Positions 18,847 to 41,829 of a DNA stretch of 64,000 nt are shown piece by piece. The stretch's first letter is position 1, and each line of letters starts with the position of its first letter. The stretch is from Lacrimispora indolis DSM 755. Lineage in GTDB: Bacteria > Bacillota > Clostridia > Lachnospirales > Lachnospiraceae. Location: the NCBI RefSeq assembly GCF_000526995.1, contig NZ_AZUI01000001.1, positions 5,188,001-5,252,000 on the forward strand, in the 5' to 3' direction. Below the pieces are notes generated by a model, which was not told the DNA's origin, made no database searches, and saw only the letters and a list, made by a program, of their open reading frames with translations. The translations under genes were made by a program, and so were the position numbers.

Positions 18847-18861
18847 ACAAACACCCTCCTT

Positions 18862-19866: not shown

Positions 19867-19881
19867 CCTGTTTCTCCTTGC

Positions 19882-19920
19882 AAAAAGGCGGTATCATTTA
19901 TTCTCATAAACCATACCGCC
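19882..19920 (-). terminator. intercistronic attenuator hairpin
   Basis: On the minus strand an inverted repeat (GGCGGTAT...ATACCGCC, with an inner TTTAT/ATAAA pairing) followed by TTTTTG lies between the binding-protein gene and its ATPase. Such hairpins usually let most transcripts stop after the binding protein, giving excess receptor over transporter. Confidence 0.75.
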
Positions 19921-19929
19921 CTCCATCAC

Positions 19930-21006: not shown

Positions 21007-21016
21007 GACTTTTCTC

Positions 21017-24468: not shown

Positions 24469-26214
24469 CTATAAATATTTTACCTCGATTTGAGAAGAAT
24501 CAAGGATATTATCTGCCTCGACTTTTTCAGTCGTTTTCCCTTCTATCCTAAGTGGCTGCTGCACATCCACAAAACACAAATCCGACATAACAACCTGACC
24601 CGCATCACAAAGCTCAATCCCCTGGCGGCAAGCTTCGAACCTGCAACCTGAAATGATGATATTGCGGTTGTACGGACCGGAAAAGCCTTGGGATTTCACA
24701 GCAATTCCGCCCATGCCGTAAGAGCCATACCGGGGCTTGAACCCGCAGTTGATAAAGCTGCAATCCTGGATCGTTATATTCTCTCCGTGCCCGCCTTCGC
24801 AGTGTGTGCTGAATTCAGCACCGATCAAAATCCCGGCATTCATAAGGTTTTCATAGCGGCAGCCCCGAATAGTTACATTTCTGCATCGAAGCAGATGGCC
24901 CGCACCGGCAATATTTTTAAACACGCTGTCCCTGCACTCATAGGAATCAGGTTCCCAGCACAGTGCATGCACCAGGGAACCTGCCGCCGCAGAATCAGGC
25001 AGATCCTCCTTTACCACCAGACGATATCTTGTTATCTGGTTGACCGTCCCCGCTACAGCGGCACCGGCAGTCTTTTCCTCCGGCTGTACGCTGCGCTCCT
25101 TAAAACCGCCGGCAAACTCCCAGCTTTCAAGCTGGAACTCAGACATGGAGATGCCGTCATAGATCCCTATGGCAGAAGGCAAACGCAGCGGAACAGGTGC
25201 ATATTTGCAGGTACAGATGAGTTCTCGCCTGCCAATCCGCCTTTCCACAATAAGAAAATTACTGTGCACGTTCTGACCGTCCATCCGTACGCCTTCCACA
25301 TGACACCGGTCCAGCAATATCGCTCCGCCGCAGCGGTAGATCTTCCAGCCATCCCTGGGTCCGGTAAAAAACTGGTCGCCGGCCGGTTTTATAACCAGAC
25401 GCCTGGCCGTTATATTCCGGCAGTTCTCCGTCAGAATGGCAAACCCGTTTGTATTGTAAATACGCATATTGGACAGGCTCAAACCGTCGCAGCCGCCGAA
25501 AAAAAGCTGGAAATCCGTGCGCCCTGACTGATGCCAGGATAATCCCTCCCCAACCTTTACCTTTCCCGCGATCTTTGCGTCCGGAAGGCACATGGTTCTT
25601 TCCCCTGTTTTGATAAACCGACGGTCATAACCAAATCCATAGGTAAGACTCTCCCCCATCAGACGGCATTCCTTCCTATTCCCCCGGTCATTGCCCCCGG
25701 TATCAAAACGGTTCATACAGTATGGGACCATTCCATCCTCACAGGGCAGATCCGGGAAAACCTCCACCTCCACCTCATCTTTTGAGACCCGCTTCACCAC
25801 ACCGGCACTGGCCGTTTCCGGAATTCTGGTCACGGCAATGTTCTCAAGCTTCAGGCTGCTGCAGCTTTCTGCCCATAAAATAGCCGGCATCAGTATCTGG
25901 GGATCCTGCTCATGCAGTCCTGCCAAAACAGTTGCCGGTTCTCCAGCCTTTGTGCATGTTCCTCTGATTGTCAGCCCCTGAATTCCTGAAAGAAAAAGAA
26001 AACAGTCTTTCTCCCGGATGTCTCCGCAGCCATCGTCATGGGCAATGGAATTGGTCTCAATCGTCTCATACTCGTCGAGTATATAAGTTCCCCTTCCCAG
26101 GCAGACACATAAGCAGCCTGTTTTCACAGCACATCTGACAGCCTCTCTTAACCCCCGGACGGCATGCCGCTTATCCGCAATAAAGTCATCCGCCCGGACA
26201 CAATCCTGTTTCAT
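24469..26214 (-). CDS. right-handed parallel beta-helix protein
   Basis: A 581-residue protein whose middle and C-terminal parts consist of beta-helix turns (repeated patterns such as ENCRNITARRLVIKPA, CRNVTIRGCRYENLMNAGI, GENITIQDCSFINCGF, RNIIISGCRFEACRQGI). This fold occurs in pectate lyases, GH28, fructotransferases and epimerases. No signal peptide is seen, so it should be cytoplasmic, unlike most beta-helix polysaccharide enzymes. Its start overlaps the SGNH hydrolase stop by four bases, and it is the last gene of the ycj-like locus. No catalytic set can be named and no terminator is clear after it. Confidence 0.8.
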   Translation of the reverse strand: MKQDCVRADDFIADKRHAVRGLREAVRCAVKTGCLCVCLGRGTYILDEYETIETNSIAHDDGCGDIREKDCFLFLSGIQGLTIRGTCTKAGEPATVLAGLHEQDPQILMPAILWAESCSSLKLENIAVTRIPETASAGVVKRVSKDEVEVEVFPDLPCEDGMVPYCMNRFDTGGNDRGNRKECRLMGESLTYGFGYDRRFIKTGERTMCLPDAKIAGKVKVGEGLSWHQSGRTDFQLFFGGCDGLSLSNMRIYNTNGFAILTENCRNITARRLVIKPAGDQFFTGPRDGWKIYRCGGAILLDRCHVEGVRMDGQNVHSNFLIVERRIGRRELICTCKYAPVPLRLPSAIGIYDGISMSEFQLESWEFAGGFKERSVQPEEKTAGAAVAGTVNQITRYRLVVKEDLPDSAAAGSLVHALCWEPDSYECRDSVFKNIAGAGHLLRCRNVTIRGCRYENLMNAGILIGAEFSTHCEGGHGENITIQDCSFINCGFKPRYGSYGMGGIAVKSQGFSGPYNRNIIISGCRFEACRQGIELCDAGQVVMSDLCFVDVQQPLRIEGKTTEKVEADNILDSSQIEVKYL

Positions 26215-26816
26215 AACAGAATCCTCCTGATCTCATTGCTCATTACCGCCGCTATTCTCACATATCCCTCGTGATTGGGGTGAACCCGGTCCTCCAGATA
26301 CAACTCCGCGTTATTGCGGTGAATTCCGCAAAGCCGGCGCATATCTATCAGTAAAAATCCCAGTTTTTTGCTGGAACGCTCCAGCTCCTCATAATAGTCC
26401 AGCATCATGTATCCTTTTTTATTGGGAAGATCATACGCCTCCCCTTCCTGCGTCACACCGTCCGGCCGCTGAAAACGGTATATGGGGGTTACCCAGGCCA
26501 GCAGAGCCGCCGGTGCTGCGGCTCGCAGCTTATCAGATGCAATCCGGACAGCTGCAGAAAATTCCTCCAGGGAACTCCCCCAATACCAGTCATTGCTTCC
26601 ATGCCAGACCAAAAACAGTTCTGCGTCTTTTGGAATCGGATGTTGTTCCAGGACTTCCAGCATGTTCCCTGGTGTGGCTTTTGTCAAACCGCTGGAACCA
26701 ACCGAAAAATTGCAGATCTCTGCCACACAGAGAGCTTCCTTAATCAACGCCTCATAGCCGCCCTGGCCGTGGTTAACCGTTGAAATACTGTCGCCGTATA
26801 TTACCAGCTTTTTCAT
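26211..26816 (-). CDS. SGNH/GDSL-family hydrolase
   Basis: A 201-residue esterase-like protein with the four SGNH blocks: YGDSIS (Ser10 nucleophile), FSVGSSG (Gly), HGSNDWYWG (Asn) and the DRVHPNHEGY region with the DxxH catalytic pair near the C-terminus. It lacks a signal peptide, so it probably removes acyl groups from an imported sugar derivative in the cytoplasm. It is translationally coupled to the beta-helix gene and follows the GH63-like gene after 160 bp. The acyl substrate is unknown. Confidence 0.85.
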   Translation of the reverse strand: MKKLVIYGDSISTVNHGQGGYEALIKEALCVAEICNFSVGSSGLTKATPGNMLEVLEQHPIPKDAELFLVWHGSNDWYWGSSLEEFSAAVRIASDKLRAAAPAALLAWVTPIYRFQRPDGVTQEGEAYDLPNKKGYMMLDYYEELERSSKKLGFLLIDMRRLCGIHRNNAELYLEDRVHPNHEGYVRIAAVMSNEIRRILL

Positions 26817-26976
26817 TATACATCTCCTTTTCTCCGGTCCGTGCCCGGCAGCCGGCCAGGAACTTCAGCAGCACCTCTTTGTATAGGTTTTGCCGGACAC
26901 ATGGTTTTCCCTCTGCCTAAGGGTGTTTACTTCCCGTCAAGCGGATATTCGCAATCCGCGCCCCTGCTTGATTCGG

Positions 26977-28626: not shown

Positions 28627-28652
28627 AACTGCACTCTCCTTATTTATGCCGT

Positions 28653-30320
28653 TCAGCCGTTTATTTTGAACCACAGATATTCATATGGTTCCAATGAAAC
28701 ATTCTGTTTCATGATTTTACCGGAAAGCAGATCGGTTCCGTCCAGTCCGGTTTTTACTTCCACCTGATCCCCGGATACGTTGACAATCGCCAATATCTGG
28801 TTCCCCGCTGCTCCTCTCACCACGGCAAAGACCTTGTCATGCAGCCGGCGGACCTGCTGTAAATTGTTCGGCGCAAAGGCCTCCTCCTGTTTTCTTACAG
28901 CCAGCATCTTCCGGTAACCGGAAAGCACTCTGCTTCTTATGGAATCCGGGTGGGAAAGTTCTTCCCTCAGCCGGTCTGCATCCAGCTTTTCACGATTGAT
29001 ACGCCGTTTGATGCCCGACTCCTGATAATCTTTATAACAGTTCCTGGAACCTAAAAGACTGTGGTAATAGATCGCCGGCATCCCCATCAAAGACAGCAGG
29101 ATGCACTGGGAGCCCAGGAATTTCCGGACCATCAGAACGGGATCCGTCTCATTTCCGGCAACCGCATCTAAGTAATTGATATTCAATTCATAGGGGACCT
29201 GGCTTCCGTCGGACAGCGATCGGTATCCCACTTCACCTCCCCGGGCCAGCACCTGCTCAACCATGAACCGGCGTTCTCTCTCACTGAGGATATCCTCCAC
29301 CGGCCGCATCCCGATGCCGTCATGGGAGGCCAGGAAATTAAAGTATGTCGTTGCTTCGGTAGTCGGTTCCAGACCGGCCGCCCAGTCCGACAGATAGACG
29401 GCTGTTCCGCTTAAGTAAGAATAGAGCGTCAGAGGCGGCAGCGGAAACTGATAGACCAGACCGGCTTCATCGTAGCCGTTGCCAAAATAACTGATGTTTT
29501 CTCTATGTGGTACATTCGTCTCCGTAATGATAGTACAGCCGCTGACACAAGCCTCCAGCACGCACCTCATGAGTTTTATCAGCTCATGGGTCTGGGGCAG
29601 ATGCATACAGGTTGTCCCCAGCTCCTTCCACGCAAATCCGATGGCATCGAAGCGGATAAACCTGGCTCCCTTTGCCGCATAAAGCAGGAGAATGTCCAGA
29701 ACTTCCAACACCACCTCAGGATCCTTATAATTCAAATCCAGCTGATCCTCGCTGAAGGTGGTCCAGAGATATCTTTTGCCCGAACCGGTCTCGAATTCTG
29801 TCAGGAGCGGCAGTGCCCGCGGCCGGATGACCGAGCTGTAATCCCCTGCCGGATCCGCCTCAATAAAGAAATTTCTGTATTTAGGGTTACCCGCCGCATA
29901 TTCTTTAAAATACTTACTGGACTTTGACACATGATTGATGACCGCGTCGTACATCATGTCATAGGATTCACGAAGCTTTTCGATATGAGACCAGTCTCCC
30001 AGTTCCCGGTTGATCTCCCTGAAATCCACAACAGAAAAGCCGTCATCTGAAGTATAGGGAAACATCGGCAGTAAATGAACTGCAGAAACCGTACGGGCAA
30101 GCTCTTCCTTCAGAAATGCCCGCAGAGTGGCCAGAGGTGCTTCCCCCTTCCGCTTAATCCCGTCGCCGTATGTAATCAACATGATATCGCCTTTGTCTAC
30201 CCAGGGATATGACTCCTTGATCTTCGGTTTCCAGGTTTCTATCAATCCATGGATCCGTTCTGCCAGTTCCTCGTGGCAATCCGGATATAAATGTTGTAAA
30301 TGTTCTTTTATGCTGTCCAT
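28653..30320 (-). CDS. ycjM: GH13_18 glycoside phosphorylase (YcjM-like, likely glucosylglycerate phosphorylase)
   Basis: A 555-residue GH13 enzyme of the sucrose-phosphorylase subfamily. The catalytic triad is visible: Asp225 in FIRFDAIGF, Glu267 in IITETNVPH and Asp334 in ASHDGIGMRP. WKELGTTCMHLPQTHELIKLM (shortened here) is typical of the YcjM/glucosylglycerate phosphorylase branch rather than of sucrose phosphorylase. The reaction would be phosphorolysis of 2-O-alpha-glucosylglycerate to alpha-glucose 1-phosphate and D-glycerate. It is cytoplasmic and sits next to the transporter ATPase. Substrate assignment depends on subfamily and context. Confidence 0.8.
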   Translation of the reverse strand: MDSIKEHLQHLYPDCHEELAERIHGLIETWKPKIKESYPWVDKGDIMLITYGDGIKRKGEAPLATLRAFLKEELARTVSAVHLLPMFPYTSDDGFSVVDFREINRELGDWSHIEKLRESYDMMYDAVINHVSKSSKYFKEYAAGNPKYRNFFIEADPAGDYSSVIRPRALPLLTEFETGSGKRYLWTTFSEDQLDLNYKDPEVVLEVLDILLLYAAKGARFIRFDAIGFAWKELGTTCMHLPQTHELIKLMRCVLEACVSGCTIITETNVPHRENISYFGNGYDEAGLVYQFPLPPLTLYSYLSGTAVYLSDWAAGLEPTTEATTYFNFLASHDGIGMRPVEDILSERERRFMVEQVLARGGEVGYRSLSDGSQVPYELNINYLDAVAGNETDPVLMVRKFLGSQCILLSLMGMPAIYYHSLLGSRNCYKDYQESGIKRRINREKLDADRLREELSHPDSIRSRVLSGYRKMLAVRKQEEAFAPNNLQQVRRLHDKVFAVVRGAAGNQILAIVNVSGDQVEVKTGLDGTDLLSGKIMKQNVSLEPYEYLWFKING

Positions 30321-30339
30321 ATTTTATCTCCAAATCTAA

Positions 30340-31443: not shown

Positions 31444-31454
31444 ATAGCTTCCTC

Positions 31455-32495
31455 CTATAATTCGACTCCGCCCCACATCTGTCCGATGTATCTTCTGATA
31501 ATAAAGGTAAATACCAGTGCAGGAAGAATCAGCACGATACTTCCAGCTGCCGCATACTGGATGCCGCTTGACGTTGTGCCGATTGCCTTGTAGACAACCA
31601 GGGACAGCGTCTGATTTTTATTGGTCAGAATCAATGCCGAGATGGTATCATTCCAGGCAGTCAAAAATGAATACATGGAACTGGCAGCCAGTGCCGGAAA
31701 TGCCAGGGGCAGGGTGATCCTGACAAAGGTCTGTACACTGCCCGCCCCAAAGATCATCGACGCCTCCTCCAGCTCTTTGCTGATGCCGATAAAAATGCTG
31801 TTGGTAATCCAGGCCGTCAGTGCAATATTGGGAACCGAATACAACAGCGCCAGGCCGATCCTCGTATCAAAGAGCCCGAATCTGATCAGCAGCATGGCCA
31901 TTGGGATGCTGATCCCAACCACCGGAAACATTCTCACAATGAGGAGTGAAACATTGATCTGCTCCTTGAATTTAAACTGGAACCGGGCCATGGCAAACCC
32001 TGCCAGGCTTCCGACTCCAAGGGAAATCAGAATCGTATAAAGGGAAACTATCATGCTGTTTTTAAGCGCTGAAGCAGCATTGGGCACAATGCTGAAAAAG
32101 GTTTTAAAATTGTAAAACAAATCTTTTTTATAGGTAAATTCCATGGGCCCATCCGTCAGGGTCTGACTGAAATCCTCCATAAGCTGCTCGCCGGGAACAG
32201 TCACCGCGTACTGTCTGGTGAAATGAGACTCCAGCTTGGACGGTCTTTTCGTGGTGATAATCGATTCATAACCTTCCCCACTGTCATAGAAGATCTCAAA
32301 CTCTTCTTTCGGGTTTGCCTCCACTTTGACTGTGACCTTAAACTTCGGAAGCAGCCCTTTGGGAAACTCCGTCATTTCCGCAGCGTTGGAGAATGCAACC
32401 GTTGTGAAAGCCAGAAGCGGAATTGCCACCAGCAGAAACATGGTTGCCAAGATGATTGCCATAACGGTTTTCTGTACAATATTCAGTTTATCCAT
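31455..32495 (-). CDS. ycjP: CUT1 ABC transporter permease with enlarged extracellular loop (YcjP/MalG-like)
   Basis: A 346-residue permease of the MalG type. The EAA loop (LEEASMIFGAGSVQTFVRIT, about residues 236-255) is normal. Between the first helix (about 12-34) and the next (about 140-165) lies a polar stretch of about 100 residues that is far longer than in typical 280-residue MalG proteins. A smaller insert is known in MalF, not MalG. The stop of the preceding permease and this ATG share one base (TAATG). The insert may help receptor docking. Confidence 0.88.
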   Translation of the reverse strand: MDKLNIVQKTVMAIILATMFLLVAIPLLAFTTVAFSNAAEMTEFPKGLLPKFKVTVKVEANPKEEFEIFYDSGEGYESIITTKRPSKLESHFTRQYAVTVPGEQLMEDFSQTLTDGPMEFTYKKDLFYNFKTFFSIVPNAASALKNSMIVSLYTILISLGVGSLAGFAMARFQFKFKEQINVSLLIVRMFPVVGISIPMAMLLIRFGLFDTRIGLALLYSVPNIALTAWITNSIFIGISKELEEASMIFGAGSVQTFVRITLPLAFPALAASSMYSFLTAWNDTISALILTNKNQTLSLVVYKAIGTTSSGIQYAAAGSIVLILPALVFTFIIRRYIGQMWGGVEL

Positions 32496-33403
32496 TATTT
32501 CGCCGCCTCCTTCTTTCCGCCCCTGGAAACCTTAAGATAGACCACGGTTGCACACAGGACGATAATGGTTGTCAGGAAGGACAGGGTAAAGGCAAGCTTT
32601 TGGCTTGTGCTGACCCCAGGTACCGCCTCCACATAAAAAGCAACACGCTCCACCAAAAACGGCACTTTGCTGTAACCCAGAACCATCACAGCAATAGCCC
32701 AGACCTGGATAGCTGCAATCAGCCTCATAATAATGGATGTTGTGATCGAAGGTTTTAAAATCGGGATAACAATATCCTTAAAAATCTGCCATTTGTTGGC
32801 GCCGAACAGATAGGCTGCCTCTTTCAGCTCCCGCTGCATTCCCTGCAGGCCGGCAATCAGGATGATCATGACGGACGGTGTAACTGTCCAGGTATCGATG
32901 AGAATGATTAAAAAAACTGCGGACAGTCCTTCTGCACCCATAAATACAATCGGCTTCTCTATCAGATGCAGCCCCATTAAAACCGTGTTGATCCAGCCGT
33001 CCCTCACAAGTCCGGTCTTCCAGAGAATCGCCACCGCCGTAGGTGTGATGGCCATTGGAATCATGGAAACGAACATCAGGATCTTGGCACCTTTAAACTT
33101 TCTCGACAGCAGCACTGCCAGAAGAAGGGCCAGAAAATATTGAAGGATCACGGATACCGCTGCAAATGCGGCAGTGTTAAAAATTGCAGCGCTGATCAAA
33201 TCAGACTCTGCCATCAGCTTAAAATTGCCCAGAAGTGTAAAGTTGCCGTCAAAATCGGTAAACACTTCTTTTATACCGGAAAGTACCGGCAGCAGCCAGA
33301 ATACTGCATAAAAAAGGAAGGCCGGCAACAGGAGAAAGTAGGGAATACTTTTTTTGCTGAGCATGGGTTTTTCCAAAATCTGTTTGCTGACATTTTCGTT
33401 CAA
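32495..33403 (-). CDS. ycjO: CUT1 ABC transporter permease (YcjO/MalF-like)
   Basis: A 302-residue permease with about six helices and the EAA loop LKEAAYLFGANKWQIFKDIV. It pairs with the MalG-like subunit. The start appears to be a TTG codon at 33401-33403, because GGGGGA lies five bases upstream; the first ATG lies 14 codons further in and lacks a ribosome site. It follows the binding-protein gene after a 160-bp gap that holds two hairpins, which probably lower its expression relative to the receptor. Confidence 0.88.
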   Translation of the reverse strand: MNENVSKQILEKPMLSKKSIPYFLLLPAFLFYAVFWLLPVLSGIKEVFTDFDGNFTLLGNFKLMAESDLISAAIFNTAAFAAVSVILQYFLALLLAVLLSRKFKGAKILMFVSMIPMAITPTAVAILWKTGLVRDGWINTVLMGLHLIEKPIVFMGAEGLSAVFLIILIDTWTVTPSVMIILIAGLQGMQRELKEAAYLFGANKWQIFKDIVIPILKPSITTSIIMRLIAAIQVWAIAVMVLGYSKVPFLVERVAFYVEAVPGVSTSQKLAFTLSFLTTIIVLCATVVYLKVSRGGKKEAAK

Positions 33404-33468
33404 ATAAATCCCCCGTTTCTATATATAAGTCTGCAGTGCAAAGTACGTCTCCCGCGGAGCGTCTTAAA

Positions 33469-33549
33469 TTTACAGAAAGCAATTCCGGTAAATTTAAAGC
33501 CTGGAAGTATGCAGCGGCGCCTGGTCCGCATTGCATCCTTCCAGGCTTT
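33469..33549 (-). terminator. intercistronic hairpins after the binding-protein gene
   Basis: On the minus strand a strong hairpin (arms near 33496-33512 and 33532-33549, AAAGCCTGGAAG and complement) is followed by a second AT-rich one (AAATTTAC...GTAAATTT, 33469-33498). There is no long T-run, so they more likely attenuate or stabilise mRNA than terminate fully. Confidence 0.6.
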
Positions 33550-33564
33550 TACACGATTAGTTCA

Positions 33565-34911
33565 TCAGTTCTTTAATGCCTCCATCTTGCTCTGAACATC
33601 TGCAAGGAAATCCTCCCCGGGAACTGCCTTGTTCTTTAAAACGCTGTTAAACACATCTCCATAAAGCAGCTTCACTGCGTTCCAATCGGAATACTCAGAT
33701 GCCGGCACACCGGTAACAATCGTTGTTTTCAACATTTCGATACCAGCTCTCATGACAACGTCATCTGAGCCCAGAATATCACCCACCTCTTCAATTGGGC
33801 TTAAAGAACCGCCGTAGTTGGAACAGAAATCATAGTTTACTTCCGGATCAGCGATATAGTTGATAAACTTCTCAGCCAGTTCCTGGTTCGGAGCCCCCTG
33901 GGCAATCCCATAGCACCATGCACCGGAAGTCGAGCCTGCGCCCTTGCTGCCTTTGGGAGCCGCACCAATTACGTAGTTGTTGGGAGCCGCATTGTAGCTT
34001 GCGCCCACCGGAGCCATATGAGCAAATGTCAGCCATACGTCGCCGCTGTTCAACGGGTCAGTGGGAGCCGTATACTGATCCTGCTCCGCATAGAAGCCGT
34101 TACCTGCAGCGATTGATGCAATGATGCCGAGAGCGTCCTTAAAACCATCAGATGTGAATTCCGGGAATCCGCCGCCATAAGCCAGGCTCATGCCGCCCAT
34201 GGGGTAAAGCAGCTGGGAACCGGTTAAGTTGGCCGGCATCATGGTTTTGCCTTCCCCTTCGCCTGCCGCGATTGCCACTGCCCATTCAGCATACTGTTCC
34301 CAGGTAATACCGGAAACAACATCTTCCTCGGTCAGTCCTTCCGGTAAATAATCCAGGGCCTTTTTGTTTGCGCAGGTAACGTATACGTCAAAACTCATGG
34401 GGACAAAGTAACGTATTCCATCCTTATTTGTAGAATTATCAAACATCTGTGTATAAGTAGAGCCGGTGCTGTTGACCAGATCCGTGATATTCTGCATCCA
34501 GCCGCCGTTGACATAGGGTGCCATATTGGCTGTGTCCGCATAAATAATATCAGTGATGTAGTTCTTTCCTTCCTGCTCCGATTGAACCTTCTTGATCGCA
34601 TCGGCCTGTGCTACAAAATCAACTTCTACTTTACAATTATTTTCTTCCTCAAATTTTTTAAAGAATGAATCCATCAGATACTGTTTTTCATGGATTTCCG
34701 GTGTGCCGCTGTATGTAACCTTTAAAACATCCCCGCCTGAGGCCTTTTCCCCACCGGCACTGGTACTTTCCCCTGCCGGAGCCACAGTCTCTTCAGCCTT
34801 TGTTTCAACAGCTTTCGTCTCAGCCGGTTTTGATGAACACCCCGCCGCACCTGCTGCGGTCACCATCAAAAGCCCCAGTACTGTCAGTTTCTTTGATAAA
34901 CTTTTTTTCAT
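33565..34911 (-). CDS. ycjN: CUT1 sugar ABC substrate-binding lipoprotein (YcjN-like)
   Basis: A 448-residue family 1 solute-binding protein. A lipoprotein signal (lipobox AAGC, about residues 22-25) leads into a Glu/Thr/Ala-rich linker. Oligosaccharide-receptor features follow (KFEEENNCKVEVDFVAQADAIKK region, DIIYADTANMAPYVNGGWM, PMSFDVYVTCANKKALDYLP). The ATG has an AAGGAGAGGG site. It is the receptor for the glycoside imported by this locus. Its natural upstream promoter region has been separated from the rest of the cluster by the IS110-family insertion. Confidence 0.9.
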   Translation of the reverse strand: MKKSLSKKLTVLGLLMVTAAGAAGCSSKPAETKAVETKAEETVAPAGESTSAGGEKASGGDVLKVTYSGTPEIHEKQYLMDSFFKKFEEENNCKVEVDFVAQADAIKKVQSEQEGKNYITDIIYADTANMAPYVNGGWMQNITDLVNSTGSTYTQMFDNSTNKDGIRYFVPMSFDVYVTCANKKALDYLPEGLTEEDVVSGITWEQYAEWAVAIAAGEGEGKTMMPANLTGSQLLYPMGGMSLAYGGGFPEFTSDGFKDALGIIASIAAGNGFYAEQDQYTAPTDPLNSGDVWLTFAHMAPVGASYNAAPNNYVIGAAPKGSKGAGSTSGAWCYGIAQGAPNQELAEKFINYIADPEVNYDFCSNYGGSLSPIEEVGDILGSDDVVMRAGIEMLKTTIVTGVPASEYSDWNAVKLLYGDVFNSVLKNKAVPGEDFLADVQSKMEALKN

Positions 34912-34937
34912 GATTCCCTCTCCTTGTATTATATAGT

Positions 34938-35160
34938 CATAGCTTTTCTTTACCTTTTCTTAGGTATGAGCTATGCTGTTTTAGATACTGTGGATTAGTT
35001 CATTTCTCCTACCACTTGATGGTTTAGTAAAGGCTCTAACCACAGTCTCTTTGTTCACTTGTTAATCAGTTAGATACCGCATGACGGTTTATTTAGAACA
35101 AGGTTACAATCGCAGAGAGCCACCGTGGTCTAAAACAGTATCAAATTCATTTAATAGGAG
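34938..35160 (+). ncRNA. candidate IS110 bridge (seek) RNA region
   Basis: The non-coding leader of the transposase contains nested inverted repeats: CATAGCT/AGCTATG (34938-34944 and 34969-34975, with TACC/GGTA inside) and CTGTGGATTAG/CTAACCACAG (34988-34998 and 35036-35045). IS110-group elements are known to encode a structured guide RNA upstream of the transposase. The exact ends and binding loops cannot be assigned without other copies. Confidence 0.35.
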
Positions 35161-35167
35161 TTTCGCT

Positions 35168-36343
35168 ATGATATACGCAGGGATTGATGTTTCCAAGGAT
35201 AAGCATGATTGTTTTATCACCAACTCAGATGGGAAGATTCTCTTTAAATCCTTTACCATTCCCAACAACCGGGAAGGTTTTGAGGTCCTCTATCAGAAGA
35301 TCACTTCCACTACAGATGATTTAACCAATGTAAAAGTAGGCCTTGAAGCCACTGGACACTACAGTTATAACATCTTGGGCTTTCTTCTTGATAAAGGTCT
35401 GACCACCTTTGTTATCAATCCGTTACATACCAGTCTTTTCAGAAAAAGTCTAAGCCTTAGAAAGACGAAAACGGATAAAGTTGATTCCCATACGATTGCT
35501 ACAATGCTTATGTCTGATGTGAACTTAAAGTCCTACTCAGACATATCTTACCACAACGAGGAATTAAAGTCACTAACCCGTTACCGTTTTGATAAAGTCA
35601 GGGAGCGCGCCAAGCTTAAAACTTCTGTTTCCCGTCTGGTTACGATTCTTTTTCCTGAACTGGAAAAGCTGGTTCCCACTCTTCATATGCCTTCCATTTC
35701 CGCTTTACTAAGCGAATTCCCCGGTGCTTTTCAGATTGCTTCTGCTCATCTTACCAGACTGACCAATCTGCTTTACGAAACCTCTAAGGGTCGTTACGGC
35801 AGAGACAACGCCATCCTGTTCAGGGAAACAGCCAGAGCCTCTATCGGTTCGAATATGCCTGTAAAATCTCTGGAACTGAAACACACCCTAAAGCTGATAG
35901 GTGAATTAGATGCCGAAATTGATGAAATCGAACAGGAAATAAAACGTATCATGGATGAACTCCATTCCCCTATTCTTACGATTCCTGGAATCAGTTACCG
36001 GATGGGCGCCATGATTCTAGCTGAAATCGGTGATTTTTCCCGTTTTGACTCTCCTGATAAGATTCTTGCCTATGCTGGATTATCTCCCTCTACCTACCAA
36101 TCCGGACAGTTGGAATCTTCTCATTCACATATGGAAAAGCGTGGTTCCAGGTATCTGCGCTACGCACTTTTTAATGCTGCTAAATTTGTCTGTAAGTGGG
36201 ATCCGGTATTTGCCGCCTATCTTGCAAAAAAGAGGGCGGAGGGTAAGCATTATAACGTTGCTGTTTCTCATGCTGCGAAGAAGCTGGTCAGAGTCATTTA
36301 TCGGTTAGAAAAATCGGGACAGGCATACAACAAAGTCTCTTAA
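35168..36343 (+). CDS. IS110-family transposase
   Basis: A 391-residue recombinase. The N-terminal DEDD RuvC-like domain begins IYAGIDVSKDKHDCFI and continues with VGLEATGHYSYNI and KTKTDKVDSHTIA. The C-terminal Tnp2/transposase_20 domain carries LTIPGISYRMGAMILAEIGD and the serine-containing YAGLSPSTYQSGQ motif. The chosen ATG has an AATAGGAG site; an upstream start would add 29 unrelated residues. The reading frame is intact, so the element may be active. A small GAGCA/TGCTC hairpin at 36370-36389 may end its transcript. Confidence 0.93.
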   Translation: MIYAGIDVSKDKHDCFITNSDGKILFKSFTIPNNREGFEVLYQKITSTTDDLTNVKVGLEATGHYSYNILGFLLDKGLTTFVINPLHTSLFRKSLSLRKTKTDKVDSHTIATMLMSDVNLKSYSDISYHNEELKSLTRYRFDKVRERAKLKTSVSRLVTILFPELEKLVPTLHMPSISALLSEFPGAFQIASAHLTRLTNLLYETSKGRYGRDNAILFRETARASIGSNMPVKSLELKHTLKLIGELDAEIDEIEQEIKRIMDELHSPILTIPGISYRMGAMILAEIGDFSRFDSPDKILAYAGLSPSTYQSGQLESSHSHMEKRGSRYLRYALFNAAKFVCKWDPVFAAYLAKKRAEGKHYNVAVSHAAKKLVRVIYRLEKSGQAYNKVS

Positions 36344-36483
36344 CTTTTCTGTTTAATAATTTTCTTTTTGAGCACCTGTAAAGATGCTCTGTTTGTCATG
36401 CGGTTTTCAAGGTACTGATTTACTTGAAATGCATTTCTGCAATTCATTCATAAACTTTCTTTTTTAGACTTGACTTTTAATAG

Positions 36484-36519
36484 TTAGTCTTTACTTATAT
36501 GTTTATAGTATTTTATCAT
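36484..36519 (-). other. possible gene start cut off by the IS element
   Basis: On the minus strand an excellent ribosome site (GGAGGAGG) precedes an ATG that opens only 11 codons (MIKYYKHISKD) before a stop, at the right edge of the IS110 region. It may be the 5' remnant of a gene interrupted by the insertion. Chance is also possible. No other gene lies in 36344-36599. Confidence 0.25.
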
Positions 36520-36599
36520 TAAGCCTCCTCCGCTACAATGTGGACGAGACCAAACTCCCACTTTATCATTGTTCATTTGCACAGCCCGCAACACGGCTT

Positions 36600-37670
36600 T
36601 CATCGGCTGCTCATCTTGATGGTGGCGATGTAAAGCAGAATCAGCTCCTTTGCCCGCCTGGGGTTTTTGTTTAACAGCTCTTCGATTTTGGCCAGCCGGT
36701 AATTGAGGGTATTGCGGTGGATGTGGAGCTTTTCGCATATCTGAGAATAATTGTCATTATGTTCCACATAAGCTGATATGGTCTCCCTCAGCACCCCATC
36801 CACATCCTGCGCTTCCAGCAAATGAATGATTTCATCCAGTTCCCTGGTCATCTCGATGTTATTTAAGAGGCATTCCAATGCCACCTCATGGTAACACAGA
36901 ATCCGTTTCCTGATCTTCAGCGCACTGGCAATGTGAAACGTCTGCATCACGGAACTGGTAGCCCTGCTTGCAACGATGTTGGATTCCCCGATATAACAGT
37001 GCTCTAAGTCACCGCTGACCTCCATAATCTTTTCCAGCCTTGCCTTAAGCCGTTCTCCTGATTGAAAGAGGAGCAGCACCTCGTCCATGCCCTGACGGAC
37101 AATATATTCATCCGTACTCAGACGGTTCTTTATGATGTCGATGATGCTGTAACGGATGTGGCCGCTGGTTATGATCACCGCGGTCCTGGGAATCTTCAGA
37201 TTAATCCCTAAGTAGGCGGCCTGATCATAAAAAGCATCGTTATATTCTTCCTGTCCCAGGCCAATCCACTCGTAAAGAAAATCCTTCAGACGGTTTTCCT
37301 TGATCGCCGTCATATCACTTAACAGCCGGTTTTCTATCATCAAAACCGCAATTGAAAGGCAGATCTGGCCGATTGGCATCACTTCCTCCACCTCTCCGTT
37401 AATAGCAATCACGCCAAGAATACTGTTGTTATAGATGATCGGCAGACTGATACCCTTTTGCTCCGTGGAAGTTGTCTCATACACCACGTAAGACTCCTTC
37501 CGCTTTAAGGCCGTCAAAGACCCCTGATGAAGGGTTCCAAGCTTTCTTTTGTCGCCGCTTGCCAGGATCACCCCGTTTGTATCCATTATGTTGATGTTGC
37601 AGGGAATGATCTTCATGATCCCATCTGCAATTTTTTGCGCATTTTCTGTATTTAAGTAATTCTGGTACAT
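36600..37670 (-). CDS. CdaR-family sugar-diacid/glycerate regulator
   Basis: A 356-residue transcription regulator. An N-terminal sugar-diacid recognition domain (about 1-135; LNTENAQKIADGIMKIIPCN and the GVIAINGEVEEVMPIGQ region) precedes a linker domain and a C-terminal PucR-type helix-turn-helix (NYSQICEKLHIHRNTLNYRL, about residues 300-325). E. coli CdaR responds to glycerate, glucarate and galactarate. D-glycerate is the product expected from the glucosylglycerate enzymes encoded downstream, so glycerate sensing fits this locus. The chosen ATG has a GGGAG site; the stop is directly before the IS110 region. Confidence 0.85.
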   Translation of the reverse strand: MYQNYLNTENAQKIADGIMKIIPCNINIMDTNGVILASGDKRKLGTLHQGSLTALKRKESYVVYETTSTEQKGISLPIIYNNSILGVIAINGEVEEVMPIGQICLSIAVLMIENRLLSDMTAIKENRLKDFLYEWIGLGQEEYNDAFYDQAAYLGINLKIPRTAVIITSGHIRYSIIDIIKNRLSTDEYIVRQGMDEVLLLFQSGERLKARLEKIMEVSGDLEHCYIGESNIVASRATSSVMQTFHIASALKIRKRILCYHEVALECLLNNIEMTRELDEIIHLLEAQDVDGVLRETISAYVEHNDNYSQICEKLHIHRNTLNYRLAKIEELLNKNPRRAKELILLYIATIKMSSR

Positions 37671-37706
37671 ATGATCTCCCACTTTCCAGGACTTCAAAAG
37701 AATGAT

Positions 37707-37850
37707 TTATATTCTGTTTCCAGAAGCAGACCCGTATGTTCCAGGATCAACGGAAAACCGCTCTGCCGCAGTCAGAAATACTTCCGGATCAGGCTTTGCC
37801 CTGGTTATGGAAAGCCCGTCCACAATCACATCAAACAGATTTTCAATTCT
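37707..37850 (-). pseudogene. remnant of beta-phosphoglucomutase (YcjU-like)
   Basis: Directly after the ycjS-like stop codon, a frame of about 47 codons reads ENLFDVIVDG, then AKPDPEVFLTAAERF and SVDP before a stop. This is the conserved cap-to-core segment of beta-phosphoglucomutases (HAD family). No start, ribosome site, N-terminal DxD nucleophile motif or C-terminal half is present. In E. coli the ycjU phosphoglucomutase gene follows ycjT here, so this looks like the scar of a deletion that removed ycjT and most of ycjU. Confidence 0.8.
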
Positions 37851-38910
37851 ATATTAGATCAACGTTTCCAGCCCCATATACAACCGGTTTTCCGGTCTCT
37901 GCCGAACGATACAGACCGGCAATCAGTTTCTGAACATAGACGGCCTGATCCGGTGTCACCAGACTAACAGCCTCCTCCCGGCAGCATTCCACGAAATGCC
38001 TGACGCAGTCATAATGCCAGTCCCGCAGCTCATCAAAGGGGTATGTCCGGTTTTCCTGCCATCCGTCTTCTTCCCCGTACAGCTCCGCAGGAAATACACT
38101 GAGGCCCTTTTTATCACCATACAGACAGAGCGTTCGTTTCTCCTTTTCCCCAATATTAACTGCATAAGAGGTTCTGATATTTAAGGAACTGCCGTCGGCA
38201 AATTTAATGAAACCAAATAATCCGTCCTCCACACCGAACCGCTCTTTGTCCCAATTTCCCAGGAAGCCCGTCCCTCCCCTTTTGCCGATCCTGTCGGAAG
38301 CCGTGGCGCAGACATAGTCAATAAGCGGATAGTTCATGAGATAAACCGCCAGATCCAGAATATGCACTCCAATGTCAATCAACGGCCCGCCGCCCTGAAG
38401 CTCTTTATCAGTAAAATTCCCCCAGCCCGGGATCCCCCTCCGGCGCATCCAGGTTACGTCCCCGGCATAAATGGCACCCAGCTCCCCGTTTTCGATCTGT
38501 TTCTTCAGAAATGCAATCCGTTCGGCATAACGAAAGTGGAATCCAAAGGTCAGAACTTTTCCCCATCGCTTTGCCGTATCCCTCATCTGTTCAGCCTCCT
38601 TTACCGTTATTGCCGGCGGCTTTTCACAGAGAACATGACAGCCATGCTCCAAGGCAGTACAGGTCATATCACAGTGAAATTTATTGGGCACGCAGATGCT
38701 GACCGCATCCGGCTCTGCTTCCTTAAGCATGAGGAAAACATCGCTGTACCATCGGGGAATTCCAAAGTCCTTTGCCGTATCCTCGGCAGCTTTCCCATTG
38801 ATATCACAGACAGCATCAACCGCCACTCCGTCCATGTCCTGATAATATTTGATATGAGAAGTCCGGGCAACCTGCCCGGCTCCGATTATTGCCACCCTTA
38901 AATTGTTCAT
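37849..38910 (-). CDS. ycjS: Gfo/Idh/MocA-family dehydrogenase (YcjS-like)
   Basis: A 353-residue NAD-dependent oxidoreductase. The Rossmann motif AIIGAGQVARTSH (about residues 7-19), the catalytic-lysine motif CEKPPAI and the histidine-containing DIGVHILDLAVYL are present. E. coli YcjS oxidises D-glucosides at C3 to 3-keto-glucosides and works with YcjR and YcjQ. The same three genes lie here in order with minimal spacing, which supports that role. The stop codon directly abuts the phosphoglucomutase remnant. Confidence 0.85.
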   Translation of the reverse strand: MNNLRVAIIGAGQVARTSHIKYYQDMDGVAVDAVCDINGKAAEDTAKDFGIPRWYSDVFLMLKEAEPDAVSICVPNKFHCDMTCTALEHGCHVLCEKPPAITVKEAEQMRDTAKRWGKVLTFGFHFRYAERIAFLKKQIENGELGAIYAGDVTWMRRRGIPGWGNFTDKELQGGGPLIDIGVHILDLAVYLMNYPLIDYVCATASDRIGKRGGTGFLGNWDKERFGVEDGLFGFIKFADGSSLNIRTSYAVNIGEKEKRTLCLYGDKKGLSVFPAELYGEEDGWQENRTYPFDELRDWHYDCVRHFVECCREEAVSLVTPDQAVYVQKLIAGLYRSAETGKPVVYGAGNVDLI

Positions 38911-38925
38911 GAGTCCCTCCTGTTT

Positions 38926-39717
38926 CTATATGAACTGTTTCATATAAGCGATGGAATTCTCATAAGCCTTAAGCGGATCTTCGCCCCGTATTCTCCCCTC
39001 ATTGACAACCGCACCCTCATAACCCATTCGCTTTAATGTCTCCATGTGCCGTTTAAAATCAATGCTGCCGCTGCCCGGCTGATATCTGTGATTTTCGGCA
39101 ATATGAACATGGCCGATGTAATCTTTATATTTCTCCAGCGTTTCAGAGATATCGTCCTCCTCAATCGCCATATGATAAAAGTCTGCCGTAACTTTTACCA
39201 TTTTAAATTTTCCCTCATCAATGATGGAAACCGCGTCTTCTGTGGTATTGAGCATATGATCCTGATAACGGTTCAGCGGCTCCAGGCAGATGTTTATTCC
39301 ATATGTATCAGCCGTCTCGTCAAGCTGCCTCAAAGAATCCAGAATTGCTTTCCGGTCTCCTTCTTTGCTTCTTGGGGAAACCATTGGCGGAAGGCGGTAT
39401 GTAAACATTCCCCAGGCAGCCGGCACTACAACTCCGGTTCCTCCCACTTCCTTTAAATTGCGGATAATCACCTTTAAATCATCGATGCCGTTCAGTCTTC
39501 TCTCTTCAATAAAATCACCGATCCAGCCGCGGTAACCGCCGCATGCGCTGGATACCGGAAGTCCCGAGACATCAATGGCGCGTTTTATTTCCTCAGCCTG
39601 TTCCATGAGGACTTTTCCATCCACCTCAAAGCACTCAAATCCAATGGCCTTCATAAACTTGAATTTCTCTGTCAGATCCTTCGGAAAAAAATCCCGCTCC
39701 TGTGTTCCCAGCAACAT
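38926..39717 (-). CDS. ycjR: sugar isomerase/epimerase, TIM barrel (YcjR-like)
   Basis: A 263-residue xylose-isomerase-like TIM barrel with metal-ligand segments CLEPLNRYQDH (Glu), VTADFYHM (Asp), GHVHIAENHR (His) and a C-terminal VNEGRIRGED (Glu). E. coli YcjR epimerises 3-keto-gulosides and 3-keto-glucosides at C4. It overlaps the ycjQ stop by one base (TGATG), with GGAGGTGA as ribosome site, so the genes are coupled. The assignment follows from both family and trio context. Confidence 0.83.
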   Translation of the reverse strand: MLLGTQERDFFPKDLTEKFKFMKAIGFECFEVDGKVLMEQAEEIKRAIDVSGLPVSSACGGYRGWIGDFIEERRLNGIDDLKVIIRNLKEVGGTGVVVPAAWGMFTYRLPPMVSPRSKEGDRKAILDSLRQLDETADTYGINICLEPLNRYQDHMLNTTEDAVSIIDEGKFKMVKVTADFYHMAIEEDDISETLEKYKDYIGHVHIAENHRYQPGSGSIDFKRHMETLKRMGYEGAVVNEGRIRGEDPLKAYENSIAYMKQFI

Positions 39718-40781
39718 CACGCCTCACCTCCGAATACAACGCCCATTTTGATGCTCTTTTCCGGTTCCCGATCCATATAGGTACAAATGCCTTCCGCACA
39801 ATTCTCAAACTTCACAATGGGATCAATGATTTCAGAACAGTCCAGATAACTGCTCATGAGCATATCCCATACTACATCCTCGATCCGCTTCCGGTTCCAC
39901 CTGGGATAATCCGGGTTCGGTTCACTGCAGGCTCTGGAAAAAATGACTTTTCCATAATTATAATGAGCCTCCTGTCCCAGCCACAAACCGGCTGGAAATG
40001 GTTTTGCAAACGCTACATAGGCGATCGTTCCTCCATAAGCCAGGCCCTTCAGCGCAGACTGCAGCGCCTGCACGCTTCCGCTTGTCTCCAAAATCCCATC
40101 CGCTCCCAGCTTTCCGGTGGAGCGCTTAATTTCATAGCCTACGTCACATGCCATCGGGTCAAGGCAGACATCGGCTCCATAGCGCGCTGCAATTTCCCGT
40201 CTCTTTTCAATGGGATCAACAGCAATGACCACGGCCGCCCCCAGCTTTTTCGCCAGCTGAACCGCGATCTGGCCAATAGCTCCAAGGCCAATCACCACTA
40301 CATTATCACCGGGGCGGATATTGGCATCCCGGATCCCACCCAGGGCAAACTGTGCCGGATCGTAACAGACTGCGTTTTTTTCCGAGGCATCCCTTCTCAT
40401 TTTTCTCAGCTTATAATTATTTACTCCATTGACAATCTCGGTCTCCCGGATCGGACCATAGGAACATACCCGGTCTCCTGCTGCATAATCCGTCACATCT
40501 GCTCCGGTCTCAATGATGGTTCCCACAAACATGTTGCCAATGGGAAGATCTCCGAATTCGATGCCCCGCGGTTCCTCCTTCTCCCGCTGGGTAAAAATAT
40601 TCCAGTCACTGTCAAACTTTCCGTCGATAAAAGGGGTGGTTCCTCTGAAATCGGCCAGCTCCGTCCCGTGCTTCGGAGCTGCAAATTCAACCTTGACTCT
40701 CACCTCATTGCTTTCAATGGGCCGATCCTCATAGTCCTTTAATTCGGCCACTCTGGGTGCTGTTGCAACTAACTTTTTCAT
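39717..40781 (-). CDS. ycjQ: zinc-dependent alcohol dehydrogenase family protein (YcjQ-like)
   Basis: A 354-residue medium-chain dehydrogenase. The Rossmann motif VVIGLGAIGQIAVQLAKKLG is clear, with the N-terminal catalytic-domain segments PKHGTEL and GNMFVGTIIETG. The usual four-cysteine structural zinc lobe is not evident. E. coli YcjQ is an NAD-dependent D-guloside dehydrogenase completing the guloside-glucoside interconversion with YcjR and YcjS. The start MKKLVATAPR has CCGGAGGAA upstream; the longer frame overlaps the repressor gene. Confidence 0.83.
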   Translation of the reverse strand: MKKLVATAPRVAELKDYEDRPIESNEVRVKVEFAAPKHGTELADFRGTTPFIDGKFDSDWNIFTQREKEEPRGIEFGDLPIGNMFVGTIIETGADVTDYAAGDRVCSYGPIRETEIVNGVNNYKLRKMRRDASEKNAVCYDPAQFALGGIRDANIRPGDNVVVIGLGAIGQIAVQLAKKLGAAVVIAVDPIEKRREIAARYGADVCLDPMACDVGYEIKRSTGKLGADGILETSGSVQALQSALKGLAYGGTIAYVAFAKPFPAGLWLGQEAHYNYGKVIFSRACSEPNPDYPRWNRKRIEDVVWDMLMSSYLDCSEIIDPIVKFENCAEGICTYMDREPEKSIKMGVVFGGEA

Positions 40782-40818
40782 GATTTCCTCCGGCTGATTT
40801 ATTATCCCTGCATTTGCC

Positions 40819-41829
40819 TCATCGGGTGGACTCCCGTTCAATAATCGTGGATGGCAGAAACATCTGTGTCTTTTTTAGTTCTTCATTGTTCTGATCTTTT
40901 TGGAGAAGCAGCTGAAGCAGGCTGATGCATTCTTTTGCCAGCCTTTCAAAGTCCTGGCCTAAAGATGACAGGGCCGGGTAAGCCTCCTCGTTGATGGACA
41001 AGTTATCGGCTGACAGCACCCCCAAATCCTCAGGTATCTTTTTTCCGCTTTCGAATGCCGCCCTATAAATTCCCAGGAAGCGGTTGTCACCGTTTGTGAA
41101 GATACAGTCCGTCTTCCCGTCAGCTAACAGCTCCTTTGTCTTTTCATAAGCGCTTCTGGCATCTTTCACACCGTAGATCACTTGTCCATCCGGTACTGCC
41201 TTTAAAAAGCCGTTTACACGCAGCTCTGTGGAATAGAAGTTCTCGTCATTGGTCAGATAGCAGATGTTCTGAAAGCCCTTTTCCCTCAAATATTTGCCGC
41301 CAGACAGTCCCACATCAAAATTATCCAGACTGACAGCTGGAATATCCTTCTCCTTGGGCTGTCCCAGCACCACATAGGGAGTAGCTGTACGCTTTAAATA
41401 TTCGATCCGCTGATCCTTTATCATGTATTCCAAAAGAATGGCTCCATCAGCAATCCCGCTGGATAGAAGGTAAAATCCATCTGTCTCGTCCTCCCGGAAT
41501 CCATAGCAATCTGACGGCGATACAATTACCTTCAGACCAATCTTACTGGAGTAGCGAAAGATATGTTTCAGCATCTCGCTTCTCCACAGATTCATATATG
41601 CATCATTGTGCTTATCCAGAAACACGATAATGATGTTGGTTCTGTTCTGCTTTAAGCCCTTTGCCAAAAGGTTCACCTGAAACCCGCACTGCTCCATGGA
41701 ACGTCTGACTGCCTCTCTCGTTTTGGGGCTTACCTGTTCCGGGTGATTGAGCACTCTCGATACCGTCTTTAGGGACACACCGCAGTGCTCGGCTATCTGT
41801 ATCATATTTGCTTTCTGAATAACCTCCAC
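40819..41829 (-). CDS. ycjW: LacI-family regulator of the ycj-like cluster
   Basis: A 336-residue LacI/GalR regulator. A helix-turn-helix (IQIAEHCGVSLKTVSRVLNH) and hinge lead into a sugar-sensing domain. It occupies the position of E. coli ycjW at the head of the cluster, 37 bp before ycjQ, and probably shares its transcript. The listed start is a GTG next to GGAAGGAAG; an ATG eight codons later (41805) is the alternative. A strong promoter precedes it. No clear palindromic operator was found beside that promoter. Confidence 0.85.
   Translation of the reverse strand: MEVIQKANMIQIAEHCGVSLKTVSRVLNHPEQVSPKTREAVRRSMEQCGFQVNLLAKGLKQNRTNIIIVFLDKHNDAYMNLWRSEMLKHIFRYSSKIGLKVIVSPSDCYGFREDETDGFYLLSSGIADGAILLEYMIKDQRIEYLKRTATPYVVLGQPKEKDIPAVSLDNFDVGLSGGKYLREKGFQNICYLTNDENFYSTELRVNGFLKAVPDGQVIYGVKDARSAYEKTKELLADGKTDCIFTNGDNRFLGIYRAAFESGKKIPEDLGVLSADNLSINEEAYPALSSLGQDFERLAKECISLLQLLLQKDQNNEELKKTQMFLPSTIIERESTR

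What the first reader, a model, noticed from the sequence alone, without database searches (positions are those of the whole stretch)
24469..41829. Firmicute ycj-like cluster with GH63 hydrolase and CdaR regulator: likely glucosylglycerate / 3-keto-glycoside utilisation
Equivalents of E. coli YcjM, N, O, P, Q, R, S, V and W are present on one strand. Known chemistry: YcjM phosphorolyses glucosylglycerate; YcjS-R-Q interconvert glucosides and gulosides through 3-keto forms. A GH63-like enzyme (the family of mycobacterial glucosylglycerate hydrolase) and a regulator family that senses glycerate are added here. The combined set would use glucosylglycerate both phosphorolytically and hydrolytically.
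Basis: partly seen in the sequence, partly recalled or inferred. Interest (0 to 1): 0.8.

Follow-up and report, generated by a model that had tools for sequence, protein, structure and literature searches.

The report
Glucosylglycerate scavenging gene cluster
A soil and gut bacterium carries a compact set of genes that appears to import sugar-decorated forms of the natural osmolyte glucosylglycerate, strip off the decorations and split the core into usable sugar phosphate and glycerate.

Summary
An IS110 element in the middle went unmentioned. The GH13 protein carries both published signatures of glucosylglycerate phosphorylase. Of 72 GH63-anchored loci, 28 have such a phosphorylase and 17 of those also a glycerate kinase, so glucosylglycerate as core substrate is well supported. 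GH63 as a parallel glucosylglycerate hydrolase is weaker: catalytic and sugar-site residues are kept, but residues that grip glycerate in known hydrolases appear replaced. I prefer a sequential reading: GH63, a GDSL esterase and a GH110-like protein (the unnamed beta-helix gene) remove outer groups from decorated glucosylglycerates, then the phosphorylase splits the core. The outer sugar is open. GT4 or GH38 genes in 5 of 9 GH63-less phosphorylase loci, and ManA-like plus ROK genes in 9 GH63 loci, hint at mannose; GH65 (YcjT-like) genes at several loci hint at glucose. No activity was tested. New variant of a known kind.

The parts
40819..41829 (-). LacI-family regulator (YcjW-like), first gene of the QRS unit; promoter-like site 41891-41863 just upstream
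   Evidence: Pfam LacI + Peripla_BP; 28% to YcjW; 11/12 sigma-70 match (consensus only)
39717..40841 (-). YcjQ homologue, zinc-type glycoside 3-dehydrogenase
   Evidence: 66% over 350 aa to E. coli YcjQ
38926..39720 (-). YcjR homologue, 3-keto-glycoside 4-epimerase (xylose isomerase-like barrel)
   Evidence: 57% to YcjR; E, D, H, E positions of the metal-site type are identical in the alignment (site recalled); next paralogue in the genome 31%
37849..38910 (-). YcjS homologue, Gfo/Idh/MocA glycoside 3-dehydrogenase
   Evidence: 44% to YcjS
36600..37697 (-). CdaR-type regulator (Diacid_rec + HTH_30)
   Evidence: PF05651 120 bits, PF13556 68 bits
34919..36503 (+). IS110 element (transposase 35081-36343, +) inserted between CdaR and the binding-protein gene, ending next to that gene's Shine-Dalgarno; not part of the pathway; boundaries approximate
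   Evidence: NF033542 213 bits; 4 copies in the genome; junctions; absent from the Hungatella locus
33565..34911 (-). ABC importer solute-binding lipoprotein
   Evidence: PF13416/PF01547; no YcjN hit
32495..33403 (-). ABC importer permease 1
   Evidence: PF00528; 26% to YcjO
31455..32495 (-). ABC importer permease 2, longer than YcjP
   Evidence: PF00528 starts at residue 162; cluster median 346 aa
30340..31476 (-). ABC importer ATPase (MalK/UgpC type)
   Evidence: PF00005, PF17912; 47% to YcjV
28653..30320 (-). GH13_18 glucosylglycerate phosphorylase
   Evidence: 43% to YcjM; TETN at residue 266 and Glu in loop A (PYELN); criteria in PMC7178133
26977..28674 (-). GH63-like cytosolic glycosidase; probable remover of an outer sugar from X-glucosylglycerate; start may be Met at 28626 (residue numbers in this report count from there)
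26211..26816 (-). GDSL/SGNH hydrolase, probable de-acylase
   Evidence: PF13472; invariant GDS, GxND and DxxHP blocks over 12 sequences
24469..26214 (-). GH110-like right-handed beta-helix protein, overlaps the GDSL gene by 4 bases

Best explanation
A cytosolic scavenging pathway for decorated 2-O-alpha-glucosylglycerates. The ABC importer brings the glycoside in (inferred). GH63, the GDSL esterase and the GH110-like protein remove outer sugar or acyl groups; the sugar taken off by GH63 is probably mannose (as in mannosylglucosylglycerate) or alpha-1,2-linked glucose (inferred). [quoted passage not shown] Glycerate kinases elsewhere in the genome take D-glycerate on (genes shown, link inferred). 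YcjQRS homologues oxidise, epimerise and reduce glycosides at C3/C4, so that epimeric cores can enter the same route (chemistry carried over from E. coli). CdaR and the LacI regulator would sense glycerate and the imported glycoside (inferred).
For: GGaP signatures: TETN plus loop-A Glu, in 28 of 28 GH13 proteins beside GH63. Of 72 loci examined (71 plus the window), an ABC permease pair is in 33, GGaP in 28, glycerate kinase in 20 (17 with GGaP), CdaR in 14 (14 with GGaP). Youngiibacter (L057) has LacI, importer, GGaP, GH63, ManA-like, ROK, GDSL, GH110-like, Q, R and S in one run on one strand. L058 and L064 have CdaR, importer, glycerate kinase, GH63, GDSL, GH110-like, GGaP, Q, R and S. Hungatella hathewayi keeps the window's gene order without the IS, with GH65, beta-phosphoglucomutase and GH38 genes added and no GH110-like gene. 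GH63: catalytic D245/E432 and sugar-site W88, D89, Y383, W384 in 41 of 41 aligned; positions of Tyr36 and Trp40 of the mycobacterial hydrolase are N82 (38 of 41) and F86 (39 of 41); the stretch after the catalytic Asp is much shorter. Decapping theme: GT4 related to mannosylglucosylglycerate synthase in 4 and GH38 in 1 of 9 GH63-less GGaP loci; a ManA-like isomerase (1qwr, E 1.3e-15) together with a ROK kinase in 9 of the 72 loci; GH65 in 4 of the 28 and, one of them cut by the stretch end, 4 of the 9; GH36 in 3 loci, GH4 alpha-galactosidase in L128.
Against: No substrate was shown for any enzyme. GT4 and GH63 co-occur in 13 loci (12 with GGaP), so they are not simple substitutes. ManA-like and ROK genes are in a minority of loci and absent from the window cluster; GH65 genes point to glucose as readily as GT4 and GH38 point to mannose. 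The GH110-like protein has Met where GH110 has its general acid, and lyases and epimerases score near the lower GH110 rows, so it may not be a hydrolase. 39 of the 72 loci lack the ABC permease pair, and of those only L068 (a short contig) has GGaP, so GH63 relatives have other uses. The N82/F86 correspondence rests on motif register, not on a superposition.
Confidence: 0.58

Rival explanations
1. One reading: GH63 hydrolyses glucosylglycerate directly to glucose and glycerate, in parallel with the phosphorylase.
Confidence: 0.2
2. GH63 is an alpha-1,2-glucosidase (kojibiose type) that takes the place of the YcjT-like GH65 enzyme, hydrolysing kojibiose or kojibiosyl-glycerate; mannose is not involved.
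For: GH65 genes 38-50% identical to YcjT lie at GGaP loci L043, L056, L067, L071, L082, L134, L135, L137, and a fragment in L128. The window locus lacks GH65 where Hungatella has it. GH63 processing glucosidases cut alpha-1,2 glucose (recalled).
Against: GH63 and GH65 occur together in L043, L056, L067, L071 and L082, so they are not clean substitutes; this genome keeps a GH65 at 687 kb; ManA-like genes have no role with glucose.
Confidence: 0.25
3. The cluster serves other alpha-glucosides; the GH13 enzyme is a phosphorylase for a different hydroxy-acid or sugar glucoside, and glycerate is not central.
For: 43% identical to YcjM, not closer; NCBIfam offers only sucrose phosphorylase, below cut-off; a ligand screen of E. 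coli YcjN found none (PMC11543891, passages).
Against: Both GGaP signatures present; glycerate kinase in 17 of 28 and CdaR in 14 of 28 phosphorylase loci.
Confidence: 0.12
4. Two unrelated operons (LacI-QRS and CdaR-importer-GH13-GH63) are neighbours by chance, now also separated by an IS element.
For: The IS110 sits between CdaR and the importer; Q, R and S are in only 6, 7 and 6 of 72 GH63-anchored loci.
Against: Same order in Hungatella; Q, R, S in one run with GGaP in L057, L058, L059, L064; all three near GGaP in L128, L135, L137, where no GH63 was seen; one cluster in E. coli.
Confidence: 0.08

Closest known systems
E. coli ycjMNOPQRSTUV-W cluster
   Same: GGaP, Q, R, S, ATPase and LacI regulator homologues; ABC importer. 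The Hungatella version also has YcjT- and YcjU-like genes in place
   Different: No YcjT or YcjU at the window locus (a GH65 match resembling both is at 687 kb); importer only distantly related; adds CdaR, GH63, GDSL and GH110-like genes
GH13_18 glucosylglycerate phosphorylase (EC 2.4.1.352; M. silvanus, S. thermophila, E. coli)
   Same: TETN motif and loop-A Glu; 43% identity to YcjM
   Different: Nothing tested that differs
GH63 mannosylglycerate / glucosylglycerate hydrolases (T. thermophilus MgH, M. hassiacum GgH)
   Different: Asn and Phe at the Tyr36/Trp40 positions, shorter stretch after the catalytic Asp, about 20% identity, beta-strand region after residue 468 outside the MgH alignment
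GH110 alpha-1,3-galactosidases (PdGH110B)
   Different: General-acid Asp344 position is Met in 8 of 8; no signal peptide seen by eye
Mannosylglycerate utilisation mngAB
   Same: MngA/MngB-like genes stand beside a GGaP in L130; MngB-like GH38 in the Hungatella version of this locus
   Different: Neither is in the window

Membership tests
[quoted passage not shown]
   TETN at residue 266; rule from PMC7178133
Glucosylglycerate phosphorylase (GH13_18) | Glu in loop A where most other clades have Gln | tested here: met
   PYELN, aligned to PYEIN in YcjM
Glucosylglycerate phosphorylase (GH13_18) | Phosphorolysis of glucosylglycerate, not sucrose | not testable with these tools
   needs enzyme assay
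GH63 glucosylglycerate hydrolase (NF047898) | Score above curated cut-off 550 | tested here: not met
   28.7 bits
GH63 glucosylglycerate hydrolase (NF047898) | Catalytic Asp182 and Glu419 | tested here: met
   D245 and E432 align with the related proteins A3, 41 of 41
GH63 glucosylglycerate hydrolase (NF047898) | Glycerate-contact Tyr36 and Trp40 | tested here: not met
   N82 and F86 by motif register; not confirmed by superposition
GH63 glucosylglycerate hydrolase (NF047898) | Cap with Arg216 and Tyr222 | tested here: inconclusive
   stretch after the catalytic Asp is shorter; no superposition possible
ycj 3-keto-glycoside set | Homologues of Q, R and S adjacent | tested here: met
ycj 3-keto-glycoside set | YcjT kojibiose phosphorylase and YcjU mutase in the cluster | tested here: not met
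   no tblastn match in the window; GH65 match at 687 kb; both present at the Hungatella locus
GH110 | Whole-length GH110 fold | tested here: met
GH110 | General acid Asp344 with Asp321 and Asp345 | tested here: not met
   M311, D288, D312
CdaR family | Diacid_rec and HTH_30 domains | tested here: met
CdaR family | Response to glycerate | not testable with these tools
   needs induction assay

The most novel reading that the evidence does not exclude
A modular class of bacterial loci built around glucosylglycerate phosphorylase degrades a largely unrecognised family of sugar- and acyl-decorated glucosylglycerates. Interchangeable decapping enzymes (GH63, GH38, GH65, a GT4 that may act as a mannosylglucosylglycerate phosphorylase, GH36, GH4, sulfatase, GDSL plus an acid-less GH110-like protein) expose the core. 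The GH63 clade found here would be a new hydrolase specificity for an outer sugar on glucosylglycerate.
Probability: 0.35. Interest if true: 0.7.

Novelty: new variant of a known kind. Interest (0 to 1): 0.5.

Why it matters
A review notes that plenty of organisms not believed to accumulate glucosylglycerate carry a putative phosphorylase for it, with the purpose unsettled (PMC7178133, passages read). These loci suggest an answer: the enzyme is the last step in scavenging larger glycosyl-glycerates made by other organisms. They offer named, testable enzymes, including a GH63 clade with an unassigned substrate and a GH110-like protein without its acid.

Tried and rejected
GH63 as a standard glucosylglycerate hydrolase: disfavoured on family score and site residues. 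In a sample of 299 Bacillota genomes none had a match over the NF047898 cut-off; of 14 control genomes only Thermus composti rang, also below the cut-off. GH13 as sucrose phosphorylase: rejected on motifs and score (210.5 against 334.4). Rfam over 20000-44000 found nothing at gathering thresholds. Terminator-like sites do not exceed shuffles (18 against 18.5, sd 4.6), so transcription units were not drawn from them. L136 and L138 were fetched as GH13 loci but lack [TS]ETN and were dropped from the GGaP counts. L132 (same length and order as L068), L043 (contig length and locus of L054) and L045 (contig length of L084) were treated as duplicates in counting. L100 and L116 encode GH63 relatives by tblastn, but my clustering put no ORF of theirs with the others. 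Alignment A2 used 41 of the 72 GH63 sequences; the rest were left out by choice, L115 because of an internal stop. Literature on mannosylglucosylglycerate: one search listed 3 papers (listing only); I saw no paper on its breakdown in the lists (one search shows 12 of 65). The primary papers on GGaP, YcjT and YcjR (PMC5601347, PMC5953851, PMC7509853) are not held, so their content comes from other papers' passages and recall. The structure of mannosylglucosylglycerate and the roles of MngA and MngB are recalled.

An error found on checking: the family first labelled 'LacI/SBP fusion' in my scripts (cluster 22, and label LacISBP22) had not been scanned. It is GH65, YcjT-like. The window's own LacI/SBP fusion gene (22155-24386) has no such relative in the loci held: the one tblastn hit is 23% over its binding-protein part in L113. 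I therefore no longer count that gene as part of the system, added the GH65 rival and lowered the main odds from 0.60 to 0.58.
Full report
What is there. On the minus strand from 41829 down to 24469 lie a LacI regulator, YcjQ, YcjR and YcjS homologues, a CdaR-type regulator, a solute-binding protein, two permeases, an ATPase, a GH13_18 enzyme, a GH63-like enzyme, a GDSL hydrolase and a beta-helix protein. Identities to E. coli K-12 are 66% (Q), 57% (R), 44% (S), 43% (M), 47% (V), 28% (W), 26% (O) and 31% (P); the binding protein has no significant YcjN match. The genome is one contig of 6,383,701 bases, the size printed for Clostridium indolis DSM 755 (PMC4149025, passages read); the identification rests on size alone. 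The cluster is patchy: among 24 sampled genomes of the same genus, three have only weak partial GH63 matches (best E 5e-12) and the rest none.

The IS element. An IS110 transposase on the plus strand separates CdaR from the binding-protein gene. The element has four copies in the genome, reported at 100% identity. At all four sites the end nearest the transposase start abuts AAGGAG with an ATG a few bases beyond, so it seems to insert at Shine-Dalgarno sequences. At the H. hathewayi locus the same gene order has no insertion. The region upstream of the importer genes is therefore displaced in this strain, and expression may differ from relatives.

The phosphorylase. A review gives two tell-tale features of glucosylglycerate phosphorylase: (T/S)ETN and a Glu in loop A (PMC7178133, passages read). 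Both are present, and in 28 of 28 GH13 proteins found beside GH63. A tree of 40 GH13 rows groups the window enzyme with those of two Hungatella species (96/89) and then of G301 (100/99).

Who travels with GH63. A scan of genome contigs with a three-sequence GH63 alignment gave 71 loci; with the window that makes 72. Of these, 33 have the permease pair and 28 the phosphorylase. Counts in all 72, with those also holding the phosphorylase in brackets: glycerate kinase 20 (17), CdaR 14 (14), GDSL of two types 14 (13) and 11 (9), GH110-like 8 (7), Q 6 (6), R 7 (7), S 6 (5), ManA-like 12 (7), ROK 13 (9), GT4 13 (12), GH38 3 (2), GH36 3 (1), GH65 4 (4; printed there under a wrong label). The GH110-like gene is next to a GDSL gene in 8 of 8. 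Flanks were at most 10 kb and many contigs end early, so these are lower bounds: the Q, R, S, GH65 and beta-phosphoglucomutase genes of H. hathewayi lie beyond the flank in L054 but are seen in L043 (L043 is taken for H. hathewayi because contig length and locus agree with L054). Families were assigned by scans of representatives.

Loci picked by the phosphorylase alone. Searches of 299 family genomes (6 with a match at 1e-60) and 398 phylum genomes (8 with a match at 1e-80), both including the own genome, gave further loci. Nine carry TETN and show no GH63 in the stretch held (L127-L131, L133-L135, L137). Of the nine, GT4 is in four, GH38 in one, Q in four, R in three, S in four, GH65 in four (one cut by the end of the stretch), glycerate kinase in one and ManA-like in none. 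The GT4 proteins score 425-451 bits against NF041101, mannosylglucosylglycerate synthase (three of the four tested; cut-off 640). The GH38 of L130 scores 766 bits against mannosylglycerate hydrolase (cut-off 1138) and its PTS neighbour 454 bits against the mannosylglycerate transporter (cut-off 763). All are below equivalog cut-offs, so these are relatives, not assignments. Other neighbours are a sulfatase (L137, and L045, which has GH63), ADP-ribosylglycohydrolase-like proteins (L134, L135), a GH4 (L128), and a GH31 beside a non-TETN GH13 (L138).

Most likely working. Import; removal of outer groups by GDSL, GH110-like and GH63; phosphorolysis of the glucosylglycerate core; glycerate to the kinases at 539 kb and 4178 kb, which lie with glucarate-type and GntP-type genes (names by eye, not scanned). 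ManA-like plus ROK genes in nine GH63 loci favour mannose as the GH63 product; GH65 genes favour glucose; GT4 and GH63 occur together in 13 loci, so the division of labour is unsettled.

Novelty. Each component family is known. The combination, the GH63 clade's probable role upstream of the phosphorylase and the GH110-like partner were not seen described in the search lists (listings, some capped; passages read only in the papers cited).

Noticed in passing
window 34919-36503: IS110 element in 4 genome copies; in 4 of 4 the left end abuts AAGGAG followed by an ATG, and relatives at 75% and 79% identity in G083 and G036 also end at GAGGAG: apparent targeting of Shine-Dalgarno sequences, unless AGGAG is the element's own end (the empty Hungatella site, which has AAAGGAG, argues against that).
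   Followed up: partly
window 22155-24386: Regulator with LacI HTH fused to an ABC-type solute-binding-protein domain, next to the cluster; no full-length relative in the loci held.
   Followed up: partly
L001 (genome 687 kb): The genome's only GH65 match lies in a 993-aa open frame and the locus also matches YcjU (37% to YcjT over 758 aa, 35% to YcjU over 214): probable phosphorylase-mutase fusion.
   Followed up: partly
window 31455-32495: YcjP-type permease is 346 aa against 280 in E. coli, with extra sequence before the BPD_transp_1 domain.
   Followed up: no
L127:10899-12248, L129:7539-8882, L131:10759-12102: GT4 proteins related to mannosylglucosylglycerate synthase beside glucosylglycerate phosphorylase (with an importer in L127 and L131); possible mannosylglucosylglycerate phosphorylases.
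   Followed up: partly
L130:2896-7650: MngA-like PTS and MngB-like GH38 beside a glucosylglycerate phosphorylase.
   Followed up: partly
L134:12381-13733, L135:4914-6296: ADP-ribosylglycohydrolase-like proteins between the importer permease and YcjQ at phosphorylase loci.
   Followed up: no
window 17092-21856: Separate ABC importer (584-aa permease, ATPase, binding protein) beside a protein that looks by eye like a glycerophosphodiester phosphodiesterase.
   Followed up: no
   Followed up: yes
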